Source: Glutamicibacter ardleyensis
GTDB lineage: Bacteria > Actinomycetota > Actinomycetes > Actinomycetales > Micrococcaceae
DNA: 64,000 bases
Assembly (NCBI RefSeq): GCF_014644555.1
Contig: NZ_BMKX01000003.1
Location: 186,001-250,000, forward strand
Direction of reading: 5' to 3'
Shown piece after piece: positions 45,055 through 53,693 of the stretch (positions are counted from its first letter, which is position 1; each line of letters opens with the position of its first letter). The notes beneath the pieces were generated by a model. The model had not been told where the DNA came from and did no database searches. It saw nothing but the letters and a program-made list of their open reading frames with translations. The position numbers and the translations under genes are program-made.

Positions 45055-47385
45055 GTGAAGTCAGTACATGCGTTGTTGGATCCGTTTAACCGCCAAAACG
45101 ATCCCGAAGCGGTGATTCACCGCAGAACCGTTGCGGCAAAAGACGAAATCACCGCGCCCTGGCCGCTCTGGCTCCACGATTCGGTACGCGAAACCTTCGA
45201 AGGTCTTGGCATTGCGCACCCCTGGCTTCATCAGGTGCAAGCGGCAGAATCAATTCATGCTGGAAACCACACAATCATTTCTACTGGCACCGCGTCAGGC
45301 AAATCTCTGGCCTATCTGATGCCGGGCATCGATCTGTTATACCGCACCCGAGAAACCGGGGCGAATGACGCTGCAGCCCAGGGAACGATCTTGTATATCT
45401 GCCCCACCAAGGCGTTAGCGGCAGACCAATTAGCTTCAGTCCAAGCCTTAGCCGTGCCCGGGGTTCGCGCGTCCAGCTACGACGGCGATACCGACCAAGG
45501 CACCCGCGCTTGGGTCAGGCAACACGCAAATTTTGTGTTCACCAATCCGGACATGTTGCATCGCGGGATCCTGTCCAATCATCAGGCCTGGTCACGTTTC
45601 TTCAAACGACTGCGCTACGTGGTCATCGACGAAGCGCATTCCTATCGTGGCGTTTTCGGTGCGCATGTGGCGAACCTGATGCGCCGGCTACGACGCATCT
45701 GCACTCACTACGGAAACGACCCGATATTTATCGGAGCCTCCGCCACTAGCTCGGATCCGGAACAATCATTTTCGCGGCTTATTGGGGCGCCAGCTACCGC
45801 GGTCACCCACGATTTCTCGGCGTCAGGTGAGCTGGTCATCGGACTATGGGAGCCACCGTTAACCGATAGAACTGGGGAAAACGGGGCGCCAGTTCGCCGT
45901 ACGGCCATTGCCGAAAGCGCTTCGATCCTCACAGATTTGATGGCTGAGCATGTGCGGAGCATCGTTTTCATCAAGTCCCGTCGTGGTGCTGAAACCATCG
46001 CAACGTTAACACGTAAGCACCTGGAGAAGTTTGCCCCGGAACTTAGCGTGCGGCTTGCAGCCTATCGCTCAGGGTATCTACCGGCCGAGCGGCGCGAAGT
46101 TGAAAAGCAACTACGCTCCGGTCAACTGCTTGGGGTGACTTCCACCTCTGCCTTAGAGCTCGGGATTGACATCGCTGGTTTGGATGCTGTGGTGGTCGCC
46201 GGTTGGCCTGGTACTCGCGCCTCGTTCTTCCAACAAATTGGCCGTGCCGGGCGCAGCGGACAAGATGCTCTTGCAATTTTTGTGGCCGCCGAAGATCCAT
46301 TAGATACCTATCTGGTTCATCATCCCGAGGCGATCTTTGAGCTCGGAGTCGAAGCGACGGTATTTGATCCGCAGAATAAGTACGTACTCAGCGGACACCT
46401 CTGTGCCGCAGCGCAAGAACATCCGTTGCGTCCCGAAGAGCTAGAACTTTTTGGCCCACAGACCGAAGAATTATTGGACTCGCTGGTGCAGCGTGGATAC
46501 CTTCGTCGGCGTCCGGCTGGATGGTTTTGGACTCATCCGCAACATGCTGCTTCGATGTTTTCGATACGCGCCGATGGCGGGGGCCCGGTCGATATTATCG
46601 ATGCTGATACCGGTGCCCTGCTGGGAACGATGGATTCACCTCAAACGCATTATCAGGCTCACCCGGGAGCCATCTATGTTCATCAAGGTGCAAGCTACCA
46701 TGTCGAAGAACTCGACGAACAAAATCATGTGGTCGTAGTCAGCCGCGTGAACCCTGACTATTACACCACCGCTCGTGACCTGACCACGGTAGCTGTGCAT
46801 TCTGAGGAACGCACCAGTAAACATCAAGAACTAAACGTATTCTTCGGAGAAGTCACCGTCACCACGCAAGTGGTCTCCTTTCAACGTAAATCGGTCGCCT
46901 CCAATGAAGTGCTCTCCGAAGAACCGTTGGAATTAGAAGCCCGCGAGCTACACACGAAGTCAGTATGGTTCACGCTCACCGAGCAACGCCTGCTCCAGGC
47001 AGGGCTTACGGTGGATCAGTTCCCCGGAGCCCTGCATGCAGCCGAACATGCAATGATCGGTTTGCTTCCATTGGTAGCTACCTCCGATAGGTGGGATATC
47101 GGTGGGGTGTCCACCGCACTGCACATGGACACCGGTCATCCCACGATCTTCGTCTATGACGCGCAACCGGGAGGCGCTGGATTCGCTGAACGCGGTTTCG
47201 AACGATTCCTCGATTGGGTCCGCGCGACTCGTGACGCCATTACCTCTTGTGAATGCGCACATGGTTGCCCCAGTTGTGTCCAGTCGCCAAAGTGTGGAAA
47301 TCGAAATAATCCTTTGGACAAGCACGGGGCGGTACTCTTGCTCAATATTGTGCTGCGGGATATTGAACCGGCTCATCACCGCTGA
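45055..47385 (+). CDS. DEAD/DEAH-box helicase, MrfA/YprA type (DUF1998)
   Basis: A 776-residue superfamily 2 helicase. Walker A is STGTASGKSLAYLMP (about residue 80), and the Walker B/DEAH box is YVVIDEAHSYRGVFG. Motif III is FIGASATSSDPEQ, and the C-terminal helicase motif VI is FFQQIGRAGRSGQ. The end holds a DUF1998-type domain with four Cys (CECAHGCPSCVQSPKCGN), probably zinc-binding. Bacillus MrfA of this family acts in excision repair of mitomycin damage. GTG 45055 start. Its stop overlaps the convergent Tad operon by ten bases. Confidence 0.92.
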   Translation: MKSVHALLDPFNRQNDPEAVIHRRTVAAKDEITAPWPLWLHDSVRETFEGLGIAHPWLHQVQAAESIHAGNHTIISTGTASGKSLAYLMPGIDLLYRTRETGANDAAAQGTILYICPTKALAADQLASVQALAVPGVRASSYDGDTDQGTRAWVRQHANFVFTNPDMLHRGILSNHQAWSRFFKRLRYVVIDEAHSYRGVFGAHVANLMRRLRRICTHYGNDPIFIGASATSSDPEQSFSRLIGAPATAVTHDFSASGELVIGLWEPPLTDRTGENGAPVRRTAIAESASILTDLMAEHVRSIVFIKSRRGAETIATLTRKHLEKFAPELSVRLAAYRSGYLPAERREVEKQLRSGQLLGVTSTSALELGIDIAGLDAVVVAGWPGTRASFFQQIGRAGRSGQDALAIFVAAEDPLDTYLVHHPEAIFELGVEATVFDPQNKYVLSGHLCAAAQEHPLRPEELELFGPQTEELLDSLVQRGYLRRRPAGWFWTHPQHAASMFSIRADGGGPVDIIDADTGALLGTMDSPQTHYQAHPGAIYVHQGASYHVEELDEQNHVVVVSRVNPDYYTTARDLTTVAVHSEERTSKHQELNVFFGEVTVTTQVVSFQRKSVASNEVLSEEPLELEARELHTKSVWFTLTEQRLLQAGLTVDQFPGALHAAEHAMIGLLPLVATSDRWDIGGVSTALHMDTGHPTIFVYDAQPGGAGFAERGFERFLDWVRATRDAITSCECAHGCPSCVQSPKCGNRNNPLDKHGAVLLLNIVLRDIEPAHHR

Positions 47386-47765
47386 TCTAATGGTGGTGCT
47401 CCGGCGCGGGCGCGCGCCGTGGCATCAAACAACTGCACATCCAGGGCAGTGAAGTTCACTGGAACGCTCACGGTGACGCGCACCGAAGTCCCGTCGGCTT
47501 CCACCGCGCAGGACTGGAGCAGGGCGTCATTTTCTGCAGAAACACTCCCGGCGATACCGCAGGGGTCTCCCGCGCGCAGTCCCCTGGCGGTATCCGCGGC
47601 AGCTAAGGCAGCCAAATCAGCTGCAGATGCTGCGCGCATCGAGGCGTGAGTGGCCGCAGTCCAAAGCAGTACTGCACACGTCAGGATGATCGCCACGGCG
47701 ACCAGAGCGGTAACCGTCACGGTTCCGTTGCCGCTCTCGTCTTTCAGAAAATGTAGCCCGCTCAT
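47376..47765 (-). CDS. Rv3654c/TadE-like pilin-related protein
   Basis: A 129-residue secreted-type protein. A short basic leader ending in ESGNGT precedes a membrane helix (VTVTALVAVAIILTCAVLLW), then a domain with two Cys. It fits the helicase/secretion neighbourhood TadE-like (Rv3654c) family. Unlike its two neighbours, it lacks the Glu at position +5 of the usual prepilin motif. ATG 47765 overlaps the tadE stop by ATGA. Last gene of the Tad operon. Confidence 0.82.
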   Translation of the reverse strand: MSGLHFLKDESGNGTVTVTALVAVAIILTCAVLLWTAATHASMRAASAADLAALAAADTARGLRAGDPCGIAGSVSAENDALLQSCAVEADGTSVRVTVSVPVNFTALDVQLFDATARARAGAPPLDQR

Positions 47766-48097
47766 TCCAACACCACGCTTGCCTCGCCTCGTACCTTTAC
47801 CTCTCCAAGCAACGGGATACTTACTGACTTGGTGACGTGAACATTCGAGTATCCGCCGGCGGTGGACACCGAATACGTTGCGTCGTGACCGGCCAATCTG
47901 ACACCGCTGGAGCGCACCACCGAATTTTCCTCACCGCGTGCCAACTCTCTAGCCATGGCGGCAGCGGCCTGTTGCACTTGGATTTGCTTCATACCCAGCA
48001 CCCCGAGACACAATAACAACGATAAAAATACGGCGACGGCCGGCAGTAGTACCGCAAATTCTGCGGTACTACTGCCTCGCTCATCATTGAGGTTCAT
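47762..48097 (-). CDS. tadE: TadE-family pseudopilin
   Basis: A 111-residue pilin-like protein. The N terminus DERGSSTAEFAVLLPAVAVF contains a prepilin-peptidase site (G^S, Glu at +5 of the mature form) followed by one hydrophobic helix. TadE-like minor pilins take part in Flp pilus assembly. Four bases follow the DUF4244 stop and its own stop overlaps the next start by ATGA. Confidence 0.9.
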   Translation of the reverse strand: MNLNDERGSSTAEFAVLLPAVAVFLSLLLCLGVLGMKQIQVQQAAAAMARELARGEENSVVRSSGVRLAGHDATYSVSTAGGYSNVHVTKSVSIPLLGEVKVRGEASVVLE

Positions 48098-48100
48098 GGC

Positions 48101-48283
48101 CTAGAGAGACAACGCTTTGCTAATCAGCCCCATGAGCATGCCACGCACATCCCCACTAGATAAGATGCTGATCAGCAATCCTGCGAATGCCACGGCGGCC
48201 AGAGTAACCATGGCGAACTCTGCGGTAGTTGAACCTTCTTCGTCGGCGAGACGCTCGGAAATTAAAGATTCCAGTCGTTTCAT
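48101..48283 (-). CDS. flp: Flp-type major pilin (DUF4244)
   Basis: A 60-residue pilin. The short leader MKRLESLISERLADEEG is followed by STTAEFAMVTLAAVAFAG, with cleavage expected after Gly and Glu at +5, as for Flp pilins. ATG 48283 is chosen for AAAGGA at six bases; the longer frame from 48298 overlaps this ribosome site. It is the likely structural subunit of the filament made by TadA/B/C. A 112-base gap precedes it, so it may have its own promoter. Confidence 0.88.
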   Translation of the reverse strand: MKRLESLISERLADEEGSTTAEFAMVTLAAVAFAGLLISILSSGDVRGMLMGLISKALSL

Positions 48284-48395: not shown

Positions 48396-48929
48396 CTACA
48401 ACCCCGGCAGCAGGGCAATAATCAGCGGCACGACGCCTAAGGCAATGAATGCTGGCAGAGCGCACGCGCCCAATGGCAGGACAAGTCTGGTGCCAAATTG
48501 TGCTCCAAGACGGGCGACTCTTTGGCTTCGTTCGCGGCGCTTTAGGGACGCCGCATTGCGCAATAGGCTTGCCGCGGGTGCCCCTGTCACGTGAGCGAAA
48601 CGCAAAGCCTTTTCAAGGGGATGCAGCCACGGCGGGACCGAATGCCAGGCTTTGTCCCACTCCATGTTCATTTCCAAACAACGCGCCACCGTGCACAGCT
48701 GCTCGCTGTGTGGCACGCTTCGGCCAAGCGTGTCCAGAATTTCCTTGATTGGCATGCCAGAATCCAGCAAGCTCGCGCTGACATCCAGAATCAATTCGGA
48801 AGGGTGATTGTGAGCTTCCGTGGTCTTGTTGCGCTCCCTCTTCAGGTTTTTTGCCGGTGCCTTGCTCGCTGAGGGGATGAATAGGAGCAGTACCGCAACG
48901 AGAACACAACAGCATGCGAAAAGAATCAT
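48396..48929 (-). CDS. tadC: TadC-like type II/IV secretion F-domain protein
   Basis: A 177-residue platform protein. An N-terminal membrane helix (LFACCCVLVAVLLLFIPSA) is followed by a cytoplasmic four-helix T2SSF domain (LDVSASLLDSGMPIKEILDT) and C-terminal segments (LVLPLGACALPAFIALG, VVPLIIALLPGL). ATG 48929 overlaps the tadB stop (ATGA), so the longer frame from 49031 is rejected. It forms, with TadB, the inner-membrane platform of the Flp pilus machine. Confidence 0.85.
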   Translation of the reverse strand: MILFACCCVLVAVLLLFIPSASKAPAKNLKRERNKTTEAHNHPSELILDVSASLLDSGMPIKEILDTLGRSVPHSEQLCTVARCLEMNMEWDKAWHSVPPWLHPLEKALRFAHVTGAPAASLLRNAASLKRRERSQRVARLGAQFGTRLVLPLGACALPAFIALGVVPLIIALLPGL

Positions 48930-49615
48930 TGCAGTGCTGCTTTCGTTGTCGTGCGCAACAGGTATCGACACCACAGCCGGTTCAGTAACCATAGGGTCAG
49001 GCCGGCTGCCACGCTCAGTTGGGCCGCCCACGATGTGCTCAGCGCCCCGAGTACGTCAATCCCCAAAAGCATTCCTGCACCAAATCCCACAAGTGGTAGC
49101 CACGTCAGTAATTTGGTGGTTGCTTTGGGCCCGGCCATCGCAGCATCAAAAGCTTGAGACGCAACCAAATCAGCTTCCAAATCATCTGCCAAGCGTTCGA
49201 GTACCTCGGCAAGGCTGGCGCCACTACGTTCGGATACTTGTAAACACCAATGCAGACGACGCACGCTCGATTGCTCGGTGCCAGAAAGGTTATTGGAGGA
49301 GGATTTGTGGGCCCCAAGTCGGTGCATCGCTCGTAATTGATGAAGCGCTTGATGCACTGGGCATTGGCTTTGTTCCGCGGTTAGTAGGGCGTCAACGGCT
49401 GGATAAAAAGTCAGTCCGCTGCGCACCAACGCTGCAAGTTCGCGGATAGTTCGGGCATCTTCAGCCAACAAATTTTTTGGCTCGCCACGTCGTCGTAAAA
49501 GCCCTCGACTGTCGAAGTTTCGCCGGATAGTCCCGGACTTGATCTGCTCGGTACTTCGCGGAAACCAAAGCCAGAAAGCGAGCACACCTAACAAAAAGAT
49601 CACCACGAGAATCAC
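48926..49615 (-). CDS. tadB: TadB-like inner-membrane platform protein
   Basis: A 229-residue protein with an N-terminal helix (LVVIFLLGVLAFWLWFP), a cytoplasmic T2SSF domain (IRELAALVRSGLTFYPAVDA; LHWCLQVSERSGASLAEVLERLADDLEA) and two C-terminal membrane segments (LLTWLPLVGFGAGMLLG, AAGLTLWLLNRLW). GTG 49615 overlaps the tadA stop by GTGA. It pairs with TadC. Confidence 0.88.
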   Translation of the reverse strand: MILVVIFLLGVLAFWLWFPRSTEQIKSGTIRRNFDSRGLLRRRGEPKNLLAEDARTIRELAALVRSGLTFYPAVDALLTAEQSQCPVHQALHQLRAMHRLGAHKSSSNNLSGTEQSSVRRLHWCLQVSERSGASLAEVLERLADDLEADLVASQAFDAAMAGPKATTKLLTWLPLVGFGAGMLLGIDVLGALSTSWAAQLSVAAGLTLWLLNRLWCRYLLRTTTKAALQ

Positions 49616-50844
49616 CTTGCGCCGTCTGCTAAGGCTTCGACAATCGCTTTCAACGTGTTCGCCCCAACTTTCTGTTCAAGCAATGGCATAAAAGAACTAT
49701 CAATGGCATCAGTTCGTTGGGTGTCAATGACCGTGTCCACACGCATATGTCCGTCCCGATCCGTGCCCAAAATCCCTAGAGCCACGGGGCCACGCCGCCC
49801 CTGAGGACCACGTGACATATGGATCACAAGATCAAGTGCGCTGCTCGCCTGAAGTGCTGTGGCTTGCAGGTTCCAGCCAGCTAGTGCACCGAGGGCCGCC
49901 AAGCGGGCGGGAACAGCTTCGGGATTATTTGCGTGTAATGTTCCTGCCGCGCCTTGATGTCCGGTGTTCATCGCTGCCAAGAAGTCTCTGATTTCAGCTC
50001 CGCGACACTCTCCGACAATTAAGCGGTCAGGTCGCATACGTAGGGCTTGGATCACGAGGTCGCGTAGCTCGATGGTGCCGGCGGCTTCGACATTCGCTGC
50101 GCGGGTTTGCATGCTTACAACGTGGTGGTGATCGACTTGGAGTTCTTGGGAGTCTTCCACCACGATGATGCGTTGACCCTGATGGGCTAAGGAAAGCATC
50201 GCTTGGAGCAAAGTGGTCTTGCCACTGCCGGTGCCGCCAGTGATCAGAAAGTTTAGTTCTCGCCTCATGATTTCTTCGAGCAGAGGACGCCACCAACTAG
50301 CAGTATTTTCCAGCACCCCGCTCAGATCTAAGGCCTGAGTTTTCTTCACACGTATCGAAATTAAGGGTCCTTGGGTCGCAATCGGAGGCAGAACTGCATG
50401 GACTCGATAGTGTTTTAAACTCATATCCATAAACGGGCTTGCATCATCTAGTCGGCGCCCGGATAACGTCGCAAGGTGTACGGCTAGCCTGCGCACCTGT
50501 TCTGCTGATCCAAAGACATAGTCGGTCAGTTCTAGACCACGTGGTGAGTCGGTCCATACCCGGCCCTGCCCATCAACCAGAACATCGGTGACCTCTGGCA
50601 ATTGTGCGAATGGCTCAAGAACGGACAGCCCGGTAACTTCGTCTTGAAGGGCCTTCAACGATTCGGCAGCTCCAGAAGATCCCAAGGCAGCGCCAGAGTC
50701 CTGTACGGCACCGGCGAGCGCCACAGCATCTAGCTGTCCCCCGCTGGCCATCGCACGTTGCCGTACGGATTCGAGAATCCGAGCATCAACTTCACGCCGG
50801 TTTGGACGACCCGTGCCTTGTGCACTATGTTTGCCCGGGCTCAT
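49612..50844 (-). CDS. tadA: TadA/CpaF-type secretion ATPase
   Basis: A 410-residue hexameric ATPase driving Flp pilus assembly. Walker A is ITGGTGSGKTTLLQAMLSL (about residue 200), the Asp box is RIIVVEDSQELQ, and Walker B/His box follow in RPDRLIVGECRGAEIRDFLAAMNTGHQGAAGTLHAN. The N-terminal domain includes VTDVLVDGQGRVWTD. ATG 50844 overlaps the ssd stop by ATGA. All motifs look active. Confidence 0.94.
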   Translation of the reverse strand: MSPGKHSAQGTGRPNRREVDARILESVRQRAMASGGQLDAVALAGAVQDSGAALGSSGAAESLKALQDEVTGLSVLEPFAQLPEVTDVLVDGQGRVWTDSPRGLELTDYVFGSAEQVRRLAVHLATLSGRRLDDASPFMDMSLKHYRVHAVLPPIATQGPLISIRVKKTQALDLSGVLENTASWWRPLLEEIMRRELNFLITGGTGSGKTTLLQAMLSLAHQGQRIIVVEDSQELQVDHHHVVSMQTRAANVEAAGTIELRDLVIQALRMRPDRLIVGECRGAEIRDFLAAMNTGHQGAAGTLHANNPEAVPARLAALGALAGWNLQATALQASSALDLVIHMSRGPQGRRGPVALGILGTDRDGHMRVDTVIDTQRTDAIDSSFMPLLEQKVGANTLKAIVEALADGAR

Positions 50845-51956
50845 GTTTCAGTCGCCTCTTTCTGCGGTAAAAGTCGCAGATCCGCGATATTCTGGCGAAC
50901 TTTTCGAGATCGCAAGATATCAAAGAGCGCCCCACGCTGAAGAACGCGAGTAATCTTTGGCAGGCTACAAAAGTGGCCTAGATATGCACTACTTGCCGGA
51001 ATTGAGTTCCGTAGATTTCTCGGACCGCACACAATGTGGGAGGTAATCGGGGGTTTACTACTGTCATCGCAGGTAAGGACTTCATGATCAATGAACTGTT
51101 CAATCACCGCATGTTGTGGATGTAAGGCGCGTCCGGTGTCGACGACGAGTAAGTCAAAGCCTTGCCTGGCAGCGGCCAATAAGCGAACCACCAATTGTTC
51201 ATCCACTCCGGCGCAGCTGGCGTTTGGGGACCATGTCAGCACGGCGGTGTCCTGCAAATATGGAAGTGTGTCCACTAGTTGATGCGGTGCAAGTGCACCA
51301 CCGGAACTACGTAGCTCCTCCCACCCGATTCCTGTAGGCGGGTCCAACGTCAGTCGAGGCCATAACCCGGTGGAATGTGGATCTAAATCAATGAGTAAGC
51401 TCTTTTGCCCACTCAACGTGCCAGCATGGGCGATGAGTGCAGCTAAGGTGCTGGTGCCTACCCCTCCAGCAAGGGATGCCAAGGACAGACAGTGAGCTTG
51501 TCCCGATCGCATCCCCCACAGTCCTAGATATTCTCCCAACCAATGGTGTGCGCTGGGTAAAATGGCAACCCGAGCGCGCGGAATCCTGCTTGCCACCGAC
51601 CAGAGCTGTTGGTCATCTTCTTCGAAGCCAAGAATGACGTCACATAGTCCAGGAAAATCCAACGCGTCATCAGCCATATCAGCACCCCAAAGCACTGGGC
51701 CATGACCTGCAGCGGGCAGATCTTTCAGCTCGGCACACTGGTGGATACGCACCGCGGCGCCCAACGCGATCAAGGCACAGCTTTCAATCAGCCGCACATC
51801 GTTACTGACCAAAGTGCACACCAGTTCTTCTGCCTGCTCACGCTCTGGTTTCACCAGGACAAGTTTTTGGTCCTGAAGCGTTTGTTCGGTAGCCACGAAG
51901 CGTGAATCACTTGGAACCTGCGGTATGCCAATACCAGGGAAAGATAACCAATTCAT
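50841..51956 (-). CDS. ssd: Septum-site determining protein / TadZ-CpaE-like MinD-type ATPase
   Basis: A 371-residue MinD/ParA-fold protein. The deviant Walker A is ASLAGGVGTSTLAALIAHAG, which lacks the usual signature Lys, and LLIDLDPHSTGLWPRL is the following strand. The N-terminal 150 residues form a receiver-like domain. In mycobacteria the orthologue (Ssd) inhibits septation and heads the Tad operon as here; TadZ/CpaE anchors pili at the pole. First gene of the pilus operon, with a divergent polymerase gene on the other side. Confidence 0.88.
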   Translation of the reverse strand: MNWLSFPGIGIPQVPSDSRFVATEQTLQDQKLVLVKPEREQAEELVCTLVSNDVRLIESCALIALGAAVRIHQCAELKDLPAAGHGPVLWGADMADDALDFPGLCDVILGFEEDDQQLWSVASRIPRARVAILPSAHHWLGEYLGLWGMRSGQAHCLSLASLAGGVGTSTLAALIAHAGTLSGQKSLLIDLDPHSTGLWPRLTLDPPTGIGWEELRSSGGALAPHQLVDTLPYLQDTAVLTWSPNASCAGVDEQLVVRLLAAARQGFDLLVVDTGRALHPQHAVIEQFIDHEVLTCDDSSKPPITSHIVCGPRNLRNSIPASSAYLGHFCSLPKITRVLQRGALFDILRSRKVRQNIADLRLLPQKEATET

Positions 51957-52043
51957 AGTTGAACGGTGACATCGTTTTGTACAGTGCCGGGCGCACCCCT
52001 AGCAAACTGGGGATATTGTCCTTGGACAATGCACAATAGAGCC

Positions 52044-53693
52044 ATGAGCATGCTTGCCTTTATCGGCGCAGACCCCGAAGGCTACGCCATCCTCGAACTG
52101 CGTCAGGCCCACAACGGTGCACCGGTCATCCCGGCCAGGTTGGTGTCCGCAACGGATTTTCCAATGGCCGTACGCACCATTGAAGACGAGCATTCTCCCC
52201 GGTGGATCATGTTGCGCACCACCCCGTGGATGCAGCCACTTTTGGCGCACGGTGTCTTCCTTGCCAAGGCACATATTCTTTCGCTTGCCCAAAGGATTTT
52301 GCATCGCAGCCCACTGAGCTCCGGTGCGTTAGATGATTTTGATGTAGATAGCCCGAATGCTCCGATACTCCGGCCAAATCAAGATGCACTGTTTGATTCT
52401 CCGGTTACCGGGGAAAGCCTCGATGACCTCGTTTCTATGTATCTGGCCCAGCGCCAGGCGCTACCTACCGAGAAGTCCGCGCGCAAACGGCTTGAACTAC
52501 TTATTCATGCCGAGTCCGTGGGTGCGCTGGTAGCCTGCGAAATGGAACATACGGGATTAGCCTGGGATGAAAAAGCACATCGCGAATTATTGCGCGAGAA
52601 GCTGGGGCCCGCAGTAGGCGAGGGGACACGTCCGGTAAAACTAGCGCAGTTAGCCCAGTCTTTAGCCCACGCGCTGAACAGTCCTGGTCTGAACCCCGAT
52701 TCCCCACGGGAACTTCTTCGTGCACTGCACCGTGCGGGATTTGCGGTTCAATCGGTCCGTGTCTGGGAATTAGAACAACTTAAACATCCACTTATCGAGC
52801 AGGTTTTAGAGTATAAAAAACTTTCTCGCTTAGCTAGTACTCATGGAGATGAGTGGCTAGACCAATGGGTCACCGAGGGACGTTTCCACCCGCATTACAT
52901 CTTAGGGACGGTCGCCTCTGGTCGGTGGGCTGCCAGTGGCGGCGGGGCTTTACAACTCCCCCACTCGATCCGCCAGGTCGTTCGAACTCCCGTGGGGCGA
53001 ACCTTTGTCATTGCCGACGGACGGCAACTTGAACCACGCATTCTTGCTGCAATCTCCCAAGACCGTCAGCTCCAAGAGGCAGGCCAACAAGATGACCTGT
53101 ATCAGTGGCTTATCAACGCGAAACTTGTCTCCGACCGCAATGAGGCAAAGTTGGGGATGCTCTCGGTTATTTACGGGGGCGGTGGTGGCACCTCAGGTGC
53201 GGTAGGCGCGGCGTTGAAGAAGAACTTCCCACAGGCGATGGCCTATGTTGATCAGGCGGCGAAAGCCGGCGAACGCGGTCAAGGGGTGCAAAGCTGGTTA
53301 GGTCGGGGCTGCCCACCGGCGGACGAAGCTTGGATACAGGCCCAGCGAGCCACCCACGATGGGGCCGGGCAGCGAGCTGCGGACGCGGCGGCACGTTCAC
53401 GCGGCAGATTCACACGGAACTTCGTGGTGCAATCAACCGCGGCGGAATGGGCTCTGGTGTGGCTAGGCCACGCCCGGCATCTGATTCGGCAGGCCGGATG
53501 GGGCGACACTTGCCAGCAAGTGTTTTTTGTTCATGACGAAGCGGTCTTTGAATGCCCGGTGGAATTGGCTCCGCAGCTAGGTGAATTAGTGCGCCACGCG
53601 GCATTGCTCGCCGGACGTACTCTCTTTGGAGAGCACAGCCCCAACTTCCCGGTCAGTGTCGGAATCTCGCAGAACTACGCTGAAGGCAAGTAA
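52044..53693 (+). CDS. Pol I-like (family A) DNA polymerase, stand-alone
   Basis: A 549-residue protein usually named bifunctional 3'-5' exonuclease/DNA polymerase. The polymerase motifs are seen: motif A FVIADGRQLEPRILAAIS, motif B DRNEAKLGMLSVIYGGG and motif C QVFFVHDEAVFEC. The N-terminal 190 residues show no DxE exonuclease motif. ATG 52044 is preferred, since the family starts there; GTG 51966 adds a non-conserved leader. It is separate from the main replicative polymerases and its role is unknown; repair is likely. Confidence 0.85.
   Translation: MSMLAFIGADPEGYAILELRQAHNGAPVIPARLVSATDFPMAVRTIEDEHSPRWIMLRTTPWMQPLLAHGVFLAKAHILSLAQRILHRSPLSSGALDDFDVDSPNAPILRPNQDALFDSPVTGESLDDLVSMYLAQRQALPTEKSARKRLELLIHAESVGALVACEMEHTGLAWDEKAHRELLREKLGPAVGEGTRPVKLAQLAQSLAHALNSPGLNPDSPRELLRALHRAGFAVQSVRVWELEQLKHPLIEQVLEYKKLSRLASTHGDEWLDQWVTEGRFHPHYILGTVASGRWAASGGGALQLPHSIRQVVRTPVGRTFVIADGRQLEPRILAAISQDRQLQEAGQQDDLYQWLINAKLVSDRNEAKLGMLSVIYGGGGGTSGAVGAALKKNFPQAMAYVDQAAKAGERGQGVQSWLGRGCPPADEAWIQAQRATHDGAGQRAADAAARSRGRFTRNFVVQSTAAEWALVWLGHARHLIRQAGWGDTCQQVFFVHDEAVFECPVELAPQLGELVRHAALLAGRTLFGEHSPNFPVSVGISQNYAEGK

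What the first reader, a model, noticed from the sequence alone, without database searches (positions are those of the whole stretch)
47376..48283. Three pilin-like proteins share the same processing site, but one lacks Glu +5
DUF4244 (EEGSTTAEFA), TadE (ERGSSTAEFA) and the Rv3654c-like protein (ESGNGTVTVT) align at a Gly before the hydrophobic helix. Only the first two keep Glu at +5, which normally guides subunit packing. The third may be a cap or a non-polymerising partner. No prepilin peptidase (TadV/CpaA) gene is found in the cluster.
Basis: partly seen in the sequence, partly recalled or inferred. Interest (0 to 1): 0.5.

Follow-up and report, generated by a model that had tools for sequence, protein, structure and literature searches.

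The report
Glu5-lacking minor pilin of Tad pilus
A soil actinobacterium carries three small pilus proteins with the same predicted cutting site; the one that lacks a usually essential glutamate belongs to a type that lacked it in every member checked, so it is probably the pilus tip piece, and the missing cutting enzyme is simply encoded elsewhere in the genome.

Summary
Three adjacent genes encode prepilin-like proteins (DUF4244/Flp, TadE, Rv3654c-like) with Gly before the hydrophobic helix; only the first two have Glu at +5. This is not peculiar to the genome: across 163 distinct relatives of the third protein Gly-1 is present in 163 and Glu+5 in 0, while TadE keeps Glu+5 in 163 of 163 and DUF4244 in 155 of 155 readable. 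The third protein is a whole-length homologue of TadE, predicted with the same helix plus three-strand fold, with a TadG-like N-terminus. TadG-type proteins of other Tad loci lack Glu+5 too: 0 of 70, 0 of 30 and 0 of 8. No prepilin peptidase lies in the cluster, but the genome has one elsewhere, with relatives in 80 of 80 family genomes, never within 20 kb of the cluster in 29 measurable pairs. That split layout, and the need for the peptidase, are published for Micrococcus luteus (PMC4322843). Best reading: an ordinary actinobacterial Tad pilus whose third subunit is the Glu5-less tip (cap) subunit. Cleavage and tip position are inferred, not shown. A second tad cluster and comEA/comEC are present, as in competent M. 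luteus.

The parts
48101..48283 (-). DUF4244 / Flp-like major prepilin candidate; Gly-1 at 48233-48235, Glu+5 at 48218-48220 (ORF listed from 48298; 48283 is the likelier start)
   Evidence: (PF14029 3.1e-21)
47762..48097 (-). TadE minor prepilin (NF041390); Gly-1 at 48074-48076, Glu+5 at 48059-48061
47376..47765 (-). Rv3654c-family (TIGR03816) protein with TadG-like N-terminus; Gly-1 at 47730-47732, Thr at +5 (47715-47717); 4-nt ATGA overlap with the TadE stop; Cys69 and Cys86
48396..49031 (-). TadC platform protein (T2SSF); the ORF as listed overlaps TadB, so the true start is probably further in
   Evidence: PF00482 5.8e-13
48926..49615 (-). TadB platform protein (T2SSF)
   Evidence: PF00482 8.3e-9
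49612..50844 (-). TadA/CpaF-type assembly ATPase
   Evidence: TIGR03819 408.3 bits, cut-off 373.15
50841..51956 (-). TadZ/Ssd-like (CpaE homologue)
   Evidence: TIGR03815 132.7 bits, below its cut-off 154.45
45055..47385 (+). neighbouring DEAH-box helicase, convergent; marks the 'helicase/secretion neighborhood', not itself a pilus part
   Evidence: TIGR03817 1135.4 bits

Best explanation
The locus is an actinobacterial Tad (type IVc) pilus cluster of the tad-2 type. DUF4244 is the major pilin; TadE and the Rv3654c-like protein are homologous minor pilins. All three are cut after Gly by a distant TadV-like A24 peptidase. The third protein has lost Glu5 because it takes the first (tip) position: Glu5 normally pairs with the N-terminal amine of the subunit above, and the tip subunit has none above it. 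TadE, with Glu5, would dock beneath it and start the DUF4244 filament. Shown: gene content, motif conservation, homology, predicted fold, a single A24 peptidase in the genome. Inferred: cleavage, complex formation, tip position.
For: Gly-1 163/163 and Glu+5 0/163 in the third family against Glu+5 163/163 in TadE and 155/155 readable in DUF4244. In TadE Glu5 is the only acidic residue in +1..+22 (163/163); in the third no acidic residue lies in +1..+21 (163/163; 7 have one at +22). Third and TadE homologous over 109 columns, 95.5%, E=1.6e-8, Gly in register; same predicted element order. ATGA overlap of tadE and the third gene in the window and in 11 of 11 named relatives. Same pattern in the genome's second cluster and its family (rows reading one shared site removed: TadG-like 0 acidic of 70, TadF Glu 65 of 65, TadE 39 Glu and 30 Asp of 69) and in plasmid-borne loci (TadG 0/8, TadE/F-like 16/16, Flp-like 9/9; how rows were picked is told under Tried and rejected). 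Peptidase. In M. luteus the distal TadG-like genes of both clusters and the peptidase were needed for surface Flp (PMC4322843, passages; the authors do not exclude polar effects for single tad genes). TadEFG tip complexes: PMC12075869 (passages).
Against: No direct evidence of cleavage or of tip position. In M. luteus TadE/TadF were not detected in sheared pili and the authors favoured a base structure (PMC4322843, passages). Two reviews list TadG among membrane components (PMC6916266; PMC10191384). PDB searches gave no clear pilin match for the third protein (EpsI:EpsJ entry Z 3.7, rmsd 3.6, 68 aligned, rank 49). The window protein misses the PF13400 cut-off, and its similarity to the second cluster's TadG-like protein covers only the N-terminal 50 columns (93.3%), to DUF4244 none was found (2.0%).
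Confidence: 0.68

Rival explanations
1. TadG-type anchor: the third protein stays in the cytoplasmic membrane as a scaffold that holds platform and pilus together and never enters the filament.
For: Suggested for A. actinomycetemcomitans TadG and repeated for M. luteus (PMC4322843, passages); TadG listed as membrane component (PMC6916266; PMC10191384). Absence of Glu5 would also fit a protein that never docks.
Against: An uncut anchor has no need of Gly-1 (163/163) with acidic -3 (148/163); homology and predicted fold are those of TadE.
Confidence: 0.17
2. Secreted protein: exported through the Tad machine or by ordinary signal peptidase I and released, as reported for Rv3654c.
For: Export of Rv3654c reported, without an obvious signal (PMC5405230, passages; PMC2864267, search listing only). 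A Cys pair 17 residues apart in 153/163 would fit an oxidised outer domain (inference).
Against: The conserved (D/E)-x-Gly site before the helix is of the prepilin type; the gene is overlapped with tadE. Export by itself is also expected of a pilin.
Confidence: 0.07
3. Ordinary polymerising minor pilin spread along the shaft, Glu5 simply dispensable.
For: Same predicted fold and site as TadE; +5 varies among non-acidic, mostly hydrophobic residues (L 74, W 39, T 10, A 10, M 9, V 8, F 5, H 3, others 5 of 163).
Against: Glu5 is kept in the paralogue (163/163) and absent here (0/163), and so in other clusters: this looks like a position-specific role, not tolerance.
Confidence: 0.06
4. Local decay: a mutation or start-site error in this genome removed Glu5.
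For: None found.
Against: 0 of 163 relatives have Glu5.
Confidence: 0.01

Closest known systems
tad-2 cluster of Micrococcus luteus (Mlut_18150-18190) with tad-1, comEA/EC and remote tadV (Mlut_05160), PMC4322843 (passages)
   Same: order tadA-tadB/C-flp-tadE-tadG-like; second tad cluster and ComEC with a ComEA-like neighbour present; peptidase in a remote place
   Different: tadB and tadC are separate here and fused there; a TadZ/Ssd-like gene is present here and reported absent there; competence untested here; no sequence-level comparison with the named M. luteus genes was made
Rv3654c-Rv3660c Flp operon of M. tuberculosis (PMC9531140, passages)
   Same: same gene order by that paper's primer table; the models NF041390 and TIGR03816 that match here are named after Rv3655c and Rv3654c
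   Different: that paper calls Rv3654c 'tadF'; the N-terminal signature here is TadG-like (no Glu5), whereas TadF proteins of other loci keep Glu5. The M. tuberculosis proteins themselves were not aligned by name here
TadEFG / KilLMN tip complexes (PMC12075869, passages)
   Same: heteromeric minor pilins of a Tad pilus; TadG-type members read here lack Glu5
   Different: KilN/TadG there carry large extra domains; here the mature chain would be 117 residues with one small head; no TadF-like gene in this cluster
Capping minor pilins without Glu5 of other type IV filaments (PMC10191384, passages; the names GspK/PilK for the cap are recalled)
   Same: same logic: a Glu5-less subunit in a tip complex
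   Different: different filament class; no sequence or fold match was shown here

Membership tests
Tad / type IVc pilus system | TadA ATPase, two single-domain platform proteins, Flp and TadE in one cluster | tested here: met
   TIGR03819, two PF00482, PF14029, NF041390
Tad / type IVc pilus system | a dedicated A24 prepilin peptidase | tested here: met
   in the genome, not in the cluster; both Asp motifs. That it acts on these proteins is not shown
Tad / type IVc pilus system | surface filaments made of Flp | not testable with these tools
   needs microscopy
Class III signal peptide (prepilin), third protein | short hydrophilic leader ending in Gly, then about 20 hydrophobic residues | tested here: met
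   12-residue leader, Gly12, helix 13-60 predicted; Gly 163/163
Class III signal peptide (prepilin), third protein | Glu at +5 | tested here: not met
   Thr; 0 of 163 relatives have Glu. An exception is described for tip-capping subunits (PMC10191384)
Class III signal peptide (prepilin), third protein | actual cleavage after Gly | not testable with these tools
   N-terminal sequencing needed
Rv3654c family (TIGR03816) | score over curated cut-off, beside the DECH helicase and TadA | tested here: met
   72.9 bits, cut-off 50.95; TIGR03817 and TIGR03819 neighbours
TadG type (PF13400) | score over curated cut-off 22.3 | tested here: not met
   20.5 bits, so called TadG-like and not filed as a PF13400 member
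TadG type (PF13400) | Gly-1 and no Glu+5 (signature derived here) | tested here: met
TadF | Glu at +5 | tested here: not met
   third has Thr; TadF of the second cluster Glu in 65 of 65
Known pilin fold in PDB | clear structural match | tested here: inconclusive

The most novel reading that the evidence does not exclude
The TadG-type subunit is the Glu5-less tip cap of Tad pili in general, the type IVc counterpart of the caps of other type IV filaments, and not a membrane anchor. In actinobacteria it survives as a minimal one-domain version with a conserved Cys pair. In a tad cluster the TadG-like prepilin without an acidic +5 residue would then mark the tip. (The second tad cluster of Micrococcaceae has a further Glu5-less Flp-size protein, so a strict 'exactly one per cluster' rule already fails there.)
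Probability: 0.5. Interest if true: 0.55.

Novelty: new member of a known kind. Interest (0 to 1): 0.34.

Why it matters
The locus itself is ordinary. What is useful is the sharp family-wide contrast: a pair of homologues of which one kept Glu5 in every sequence read and the other in none. It argues that the Rv3654c/TadG type is a processed tip pilin rather than an anchor (as two reviews list TadG) or a TadF (as one paper names it), and it makes the role of TadG testable in the simple Tad machines of monoderms. Whether this rule is in print for TadG: the search 'TadG'+'Glu5' gave two reviews, neither of which makes the link in the passages read, and a five-term search gave none; the library holds open-access papers only.

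Tried and rejected
Missing peptidase as an anomaly: rejected, it is elsewhere. The second, weak PF01478 hit (E=0.44 on C5) lies opposite a sulfurtransferase-like ORF (by eye) and was judged chance. Local loss of Glu5: rejected. Compensating acid near +5: none from +1 to +21 in 163 of 163.

Foldseek against PDB gave no significant match for the third model (best E 0.70); VIA-align listed an EpsI:EpsJ chain at rank 49 (Z 3.7). The TadE model gave one pseudopilus row (9a1f_R, Z 6.2, rmsd 3.1, 92 aligned, rank 42) below pantothenate synthetases (Z up to 8.5). Not used as evidence. hhalign with 12 sequences a side was weak (22.7%); with 164 and 163 it was clear.

Rows dropped or doubtful. Of 167 loci with the third protein 163 are distinct; L093 had no TadE or DUF4244 hit; in L180 TadE and the third site lie in one open frame and both are counted; 2 of 157 distinct DUF4244 rows are cut short at the site (non-Gly list: L081, L125); other non-Gly rows are DUF4244 of L032 (Ala) and TadE of L021 (Pro). 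The 167 loci were found with the TIGR03816 model or near TadA, so the sample is conditional on that family; a Glu5 member should still have scored, but the draw is not unbiased. Second cluster: one search gave TadF 69 Glu + 1 Asp and TadE 40 Glu + 30 Asp of 70, but in 6 loci both profiles had taken one site; removes these (TadF 65 rows, TadE 69). Flp-like: 69 of 70 loci with a hit, 67 readable.

Plasmid loci (11 records used; L230 is a conjugation locus and was not used): 8 TadG (7 of Pseudomonadota, 1 of an actinobacterial plasmid; 3 starts extended upstream in frame). Of the 16 TadE/F-like rows 12 are annotated TadE, TadF or TadE/TadG and 4 were taken by position or motif; 5 or more of the Flp rows are annotated Flp or PilA, the two of Ancylobacter only 'hypothetical'. 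In the Chloroflexota locus (L237) one TadE row has three possible Gly and I took the one that puts Glu at +5; a further Glu5 row and one candidate with Pro at +5 there were left out of the counts. The 30 PF13400 loci are the best of 30 genomes, and some also match TIGR03816.

Against my reading: of the class sample 4 of 256 TIGR03816-positive genomes lack a PF01478 hit (G251, G268, G287, G294, all drafts of 80-230 contigs); of the 39 without TIGR03816, 32 still have one, so the peptidase also serves other systems (lists compared by eye; Fisher p 9e-5, species not independent).
Full report
What is there. The window belongs to a Glutamicibacter-like actinobacterium (TadA 96% identical to Arthrobacter sp. 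MYb213; most other named relatives are Glutamicibacter or Arthrobacter). On the minus strand runs a tad cluster: TadZ/Ssd-like, TadA, TadB, TadC, DUF4244, TadE, Rv3654c-like, facing a DEAH helicase. This is the 'helicase/secretion neighborhood' of NCBIfam names.

Is it more than chance. Counts on distinct sequences: third, Gly-1 163/163, Glu+5 0/163 (L 74, W 39, T 10, A 10, M 9, V 8, F 5, H 3, others 5); TadE, Gly-1 162/163, Glu+5 163/163; DUF4244, Gly-1 154/155 readable, Glu+5 155/155. Acidic at -3: 148/163, 121/163, 149/155. In TadE Glu5 is the only acidic residue of the first 22; in the third none occurs in the first 21. Thr in the window is thus one of several non-acidic residues.

What the third protein is. 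Its profile is homologous to that of TadE over 109 columns (95.5%, E=1.6e-8) with Gly in register; it resembles the TadG-like protein of the second cluster over the N-terminal 50 columns (93.3%), and no similarity to DUF4244 was found (2.0%), whereas TadE and DUF4244 align over 33 columns (93.3%). AlphaFold2 with 12 sequences gives helix 13-60, starting at the first mature residue, a second helix and three strands (mean pLDDT 77.6); TadE has the same order (83.8). PDB searches were inconclusive. Two Cys lie 17 residues apart in 153 of 163. Its start overlaps the tadE stop as ATGA in the window and in 11 of 11 named relatives, which suggests coupled translation.

TadF or TadG. One paper calls Rv3654c tadF (PMC9531140, passages); the M. 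luteus authors liken the distal genes to TadG (PMC4322843, passages). I compared +5 in other clusters. Second cluster of this genome and 69 family loci, with rows that read one shared site removed: TadF Glu 65 of 65, TadE 39 Glu and 30 Asp of 69, TadG-like no acidic residue in 70. Plasmid-borne loci (Alpha-, Beta-, Gammaproteobacteria, Chloroflexota, one actinobacterial plasmid): Flp-like 9/9 Glu, TadE/F-like 16/16 Glu, TadG 0/8 (choice of rows under Tried and rejected). Best PF13400 locus of each of 30 actinobacterial genomes: Gly 30/30, Glu+5 0/30, the Gly lying at the Pfam match in the loci. So lack of Glu5 goes with the TadG type, and the third protein is TadG-like by that signature although it misses the PF13400 cut-off narrowly (20.5 against 22.3 bits) and in its body is closest to TadE.

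The peptidase. The genome has one PF01478 protein over cut-off, 164 residues, no other Pfam domain, on another contig, between an ORF of unknown kind and a NUDIX-like ORF (by eye). A relative is found in 80 of 80 family genomes, 17 of which have more than one; both Asp motifs are present in 30 of 30 loci read. Where cluster and peptidase share a contig (29 pairs) the shortest distance is 90 kb; the other genomes are not measurable because the contigs differ. Angelov et al. report the same split layout, call it typical of actinobacteria, and could not detect extracellular Flp when the remote peptidase was deleted (PMC4322843, passages).

How it probably works. Prepilins sit in the membrane with the leader inside; the remote TadV-like peptidase cuts after Gly. 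In type IV filaments Glu5 pairs with the N-terminal amine of the subunit above, and tip complexes are capped by a subunit lacking Glu5 (PMC10191384, passages). TadEFG were proposed as Tad pilus tips (PMC12075869, passages). I infer that the Rv3654c-like protein is the first subunit, TadE docks below it through its Glu5, and DUF4244 follows. Cleavage, complex and place are inferred. The main rival is the membrane anchor listed in reviews (PMC6916266, passages; PMC10191384); it does not explain the invariant cut site if uncut. The non-detection of TadE/TadF in sheared M. luteus pili counts against a place in the pilus, though one tip complex per pilus would be scarce.

Function of the pilus. The genome has a second tad cluster, ComEC and next to it a 209-residue ComEA-like helix-hairpin-helix protein (by eye). 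These match the set used for natural transformation in M. luteus (PMC4322843). DNA uptake is therefore the likeliest use, untested here; adhesion is the alternative.

Verdict.

Noticed in passing
L118:6736-6969 (-), G000 contig C8 (second tad cluster of the same genome): A 77-residue Flp-size protein between tadC and tadE with the site G|DVPGWV: Trp at +5, Asp at +1. It is invariant in 67 of 67 readable family loci, stricter than the sites of the true pilins; no Pfam match over cut-off. Its likely counterpart in M. luteus (Mlut_07530, by position only) is among the tad ORFs whose deletion ended transformation, polar effects not excluded (PMC4322843, passages). A second Glu5-less pilin-like protein, perhaps an adapter.
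   Followed up: partly
L118:6304-6720 (-) and relatives: TadE of the second cluster has Asp instead of Glu at +5 in 30 of 69 loci.
   Followed up: no
L118:5441-10036 (-), L119:3652-6548 (-): Second tad cluster plus comEC and a ComEA-like gene: the genome has the M. luteus-type competence set.
   Followed up: partly
L180:1559-2341 (-): TadE and the Rv3654c-like protein lie in one open frame with no stop between them: a natural fusion or a sequence error; one of 167 loci.
   Followed up: no
class sample, family f83: A family of small genomes (1.2-2.2 Mb) does not appear among the listed Rv3654c-family positives, yet many members keep an A24 peptidase (E 3e-5 to 3e-16); its substrates are unknown.
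   Followed up: no
window 51966-53693 (+): DNA polymerase I-like ORF divergent from the tad cluster (by eye, no family search).
   Followed up: no
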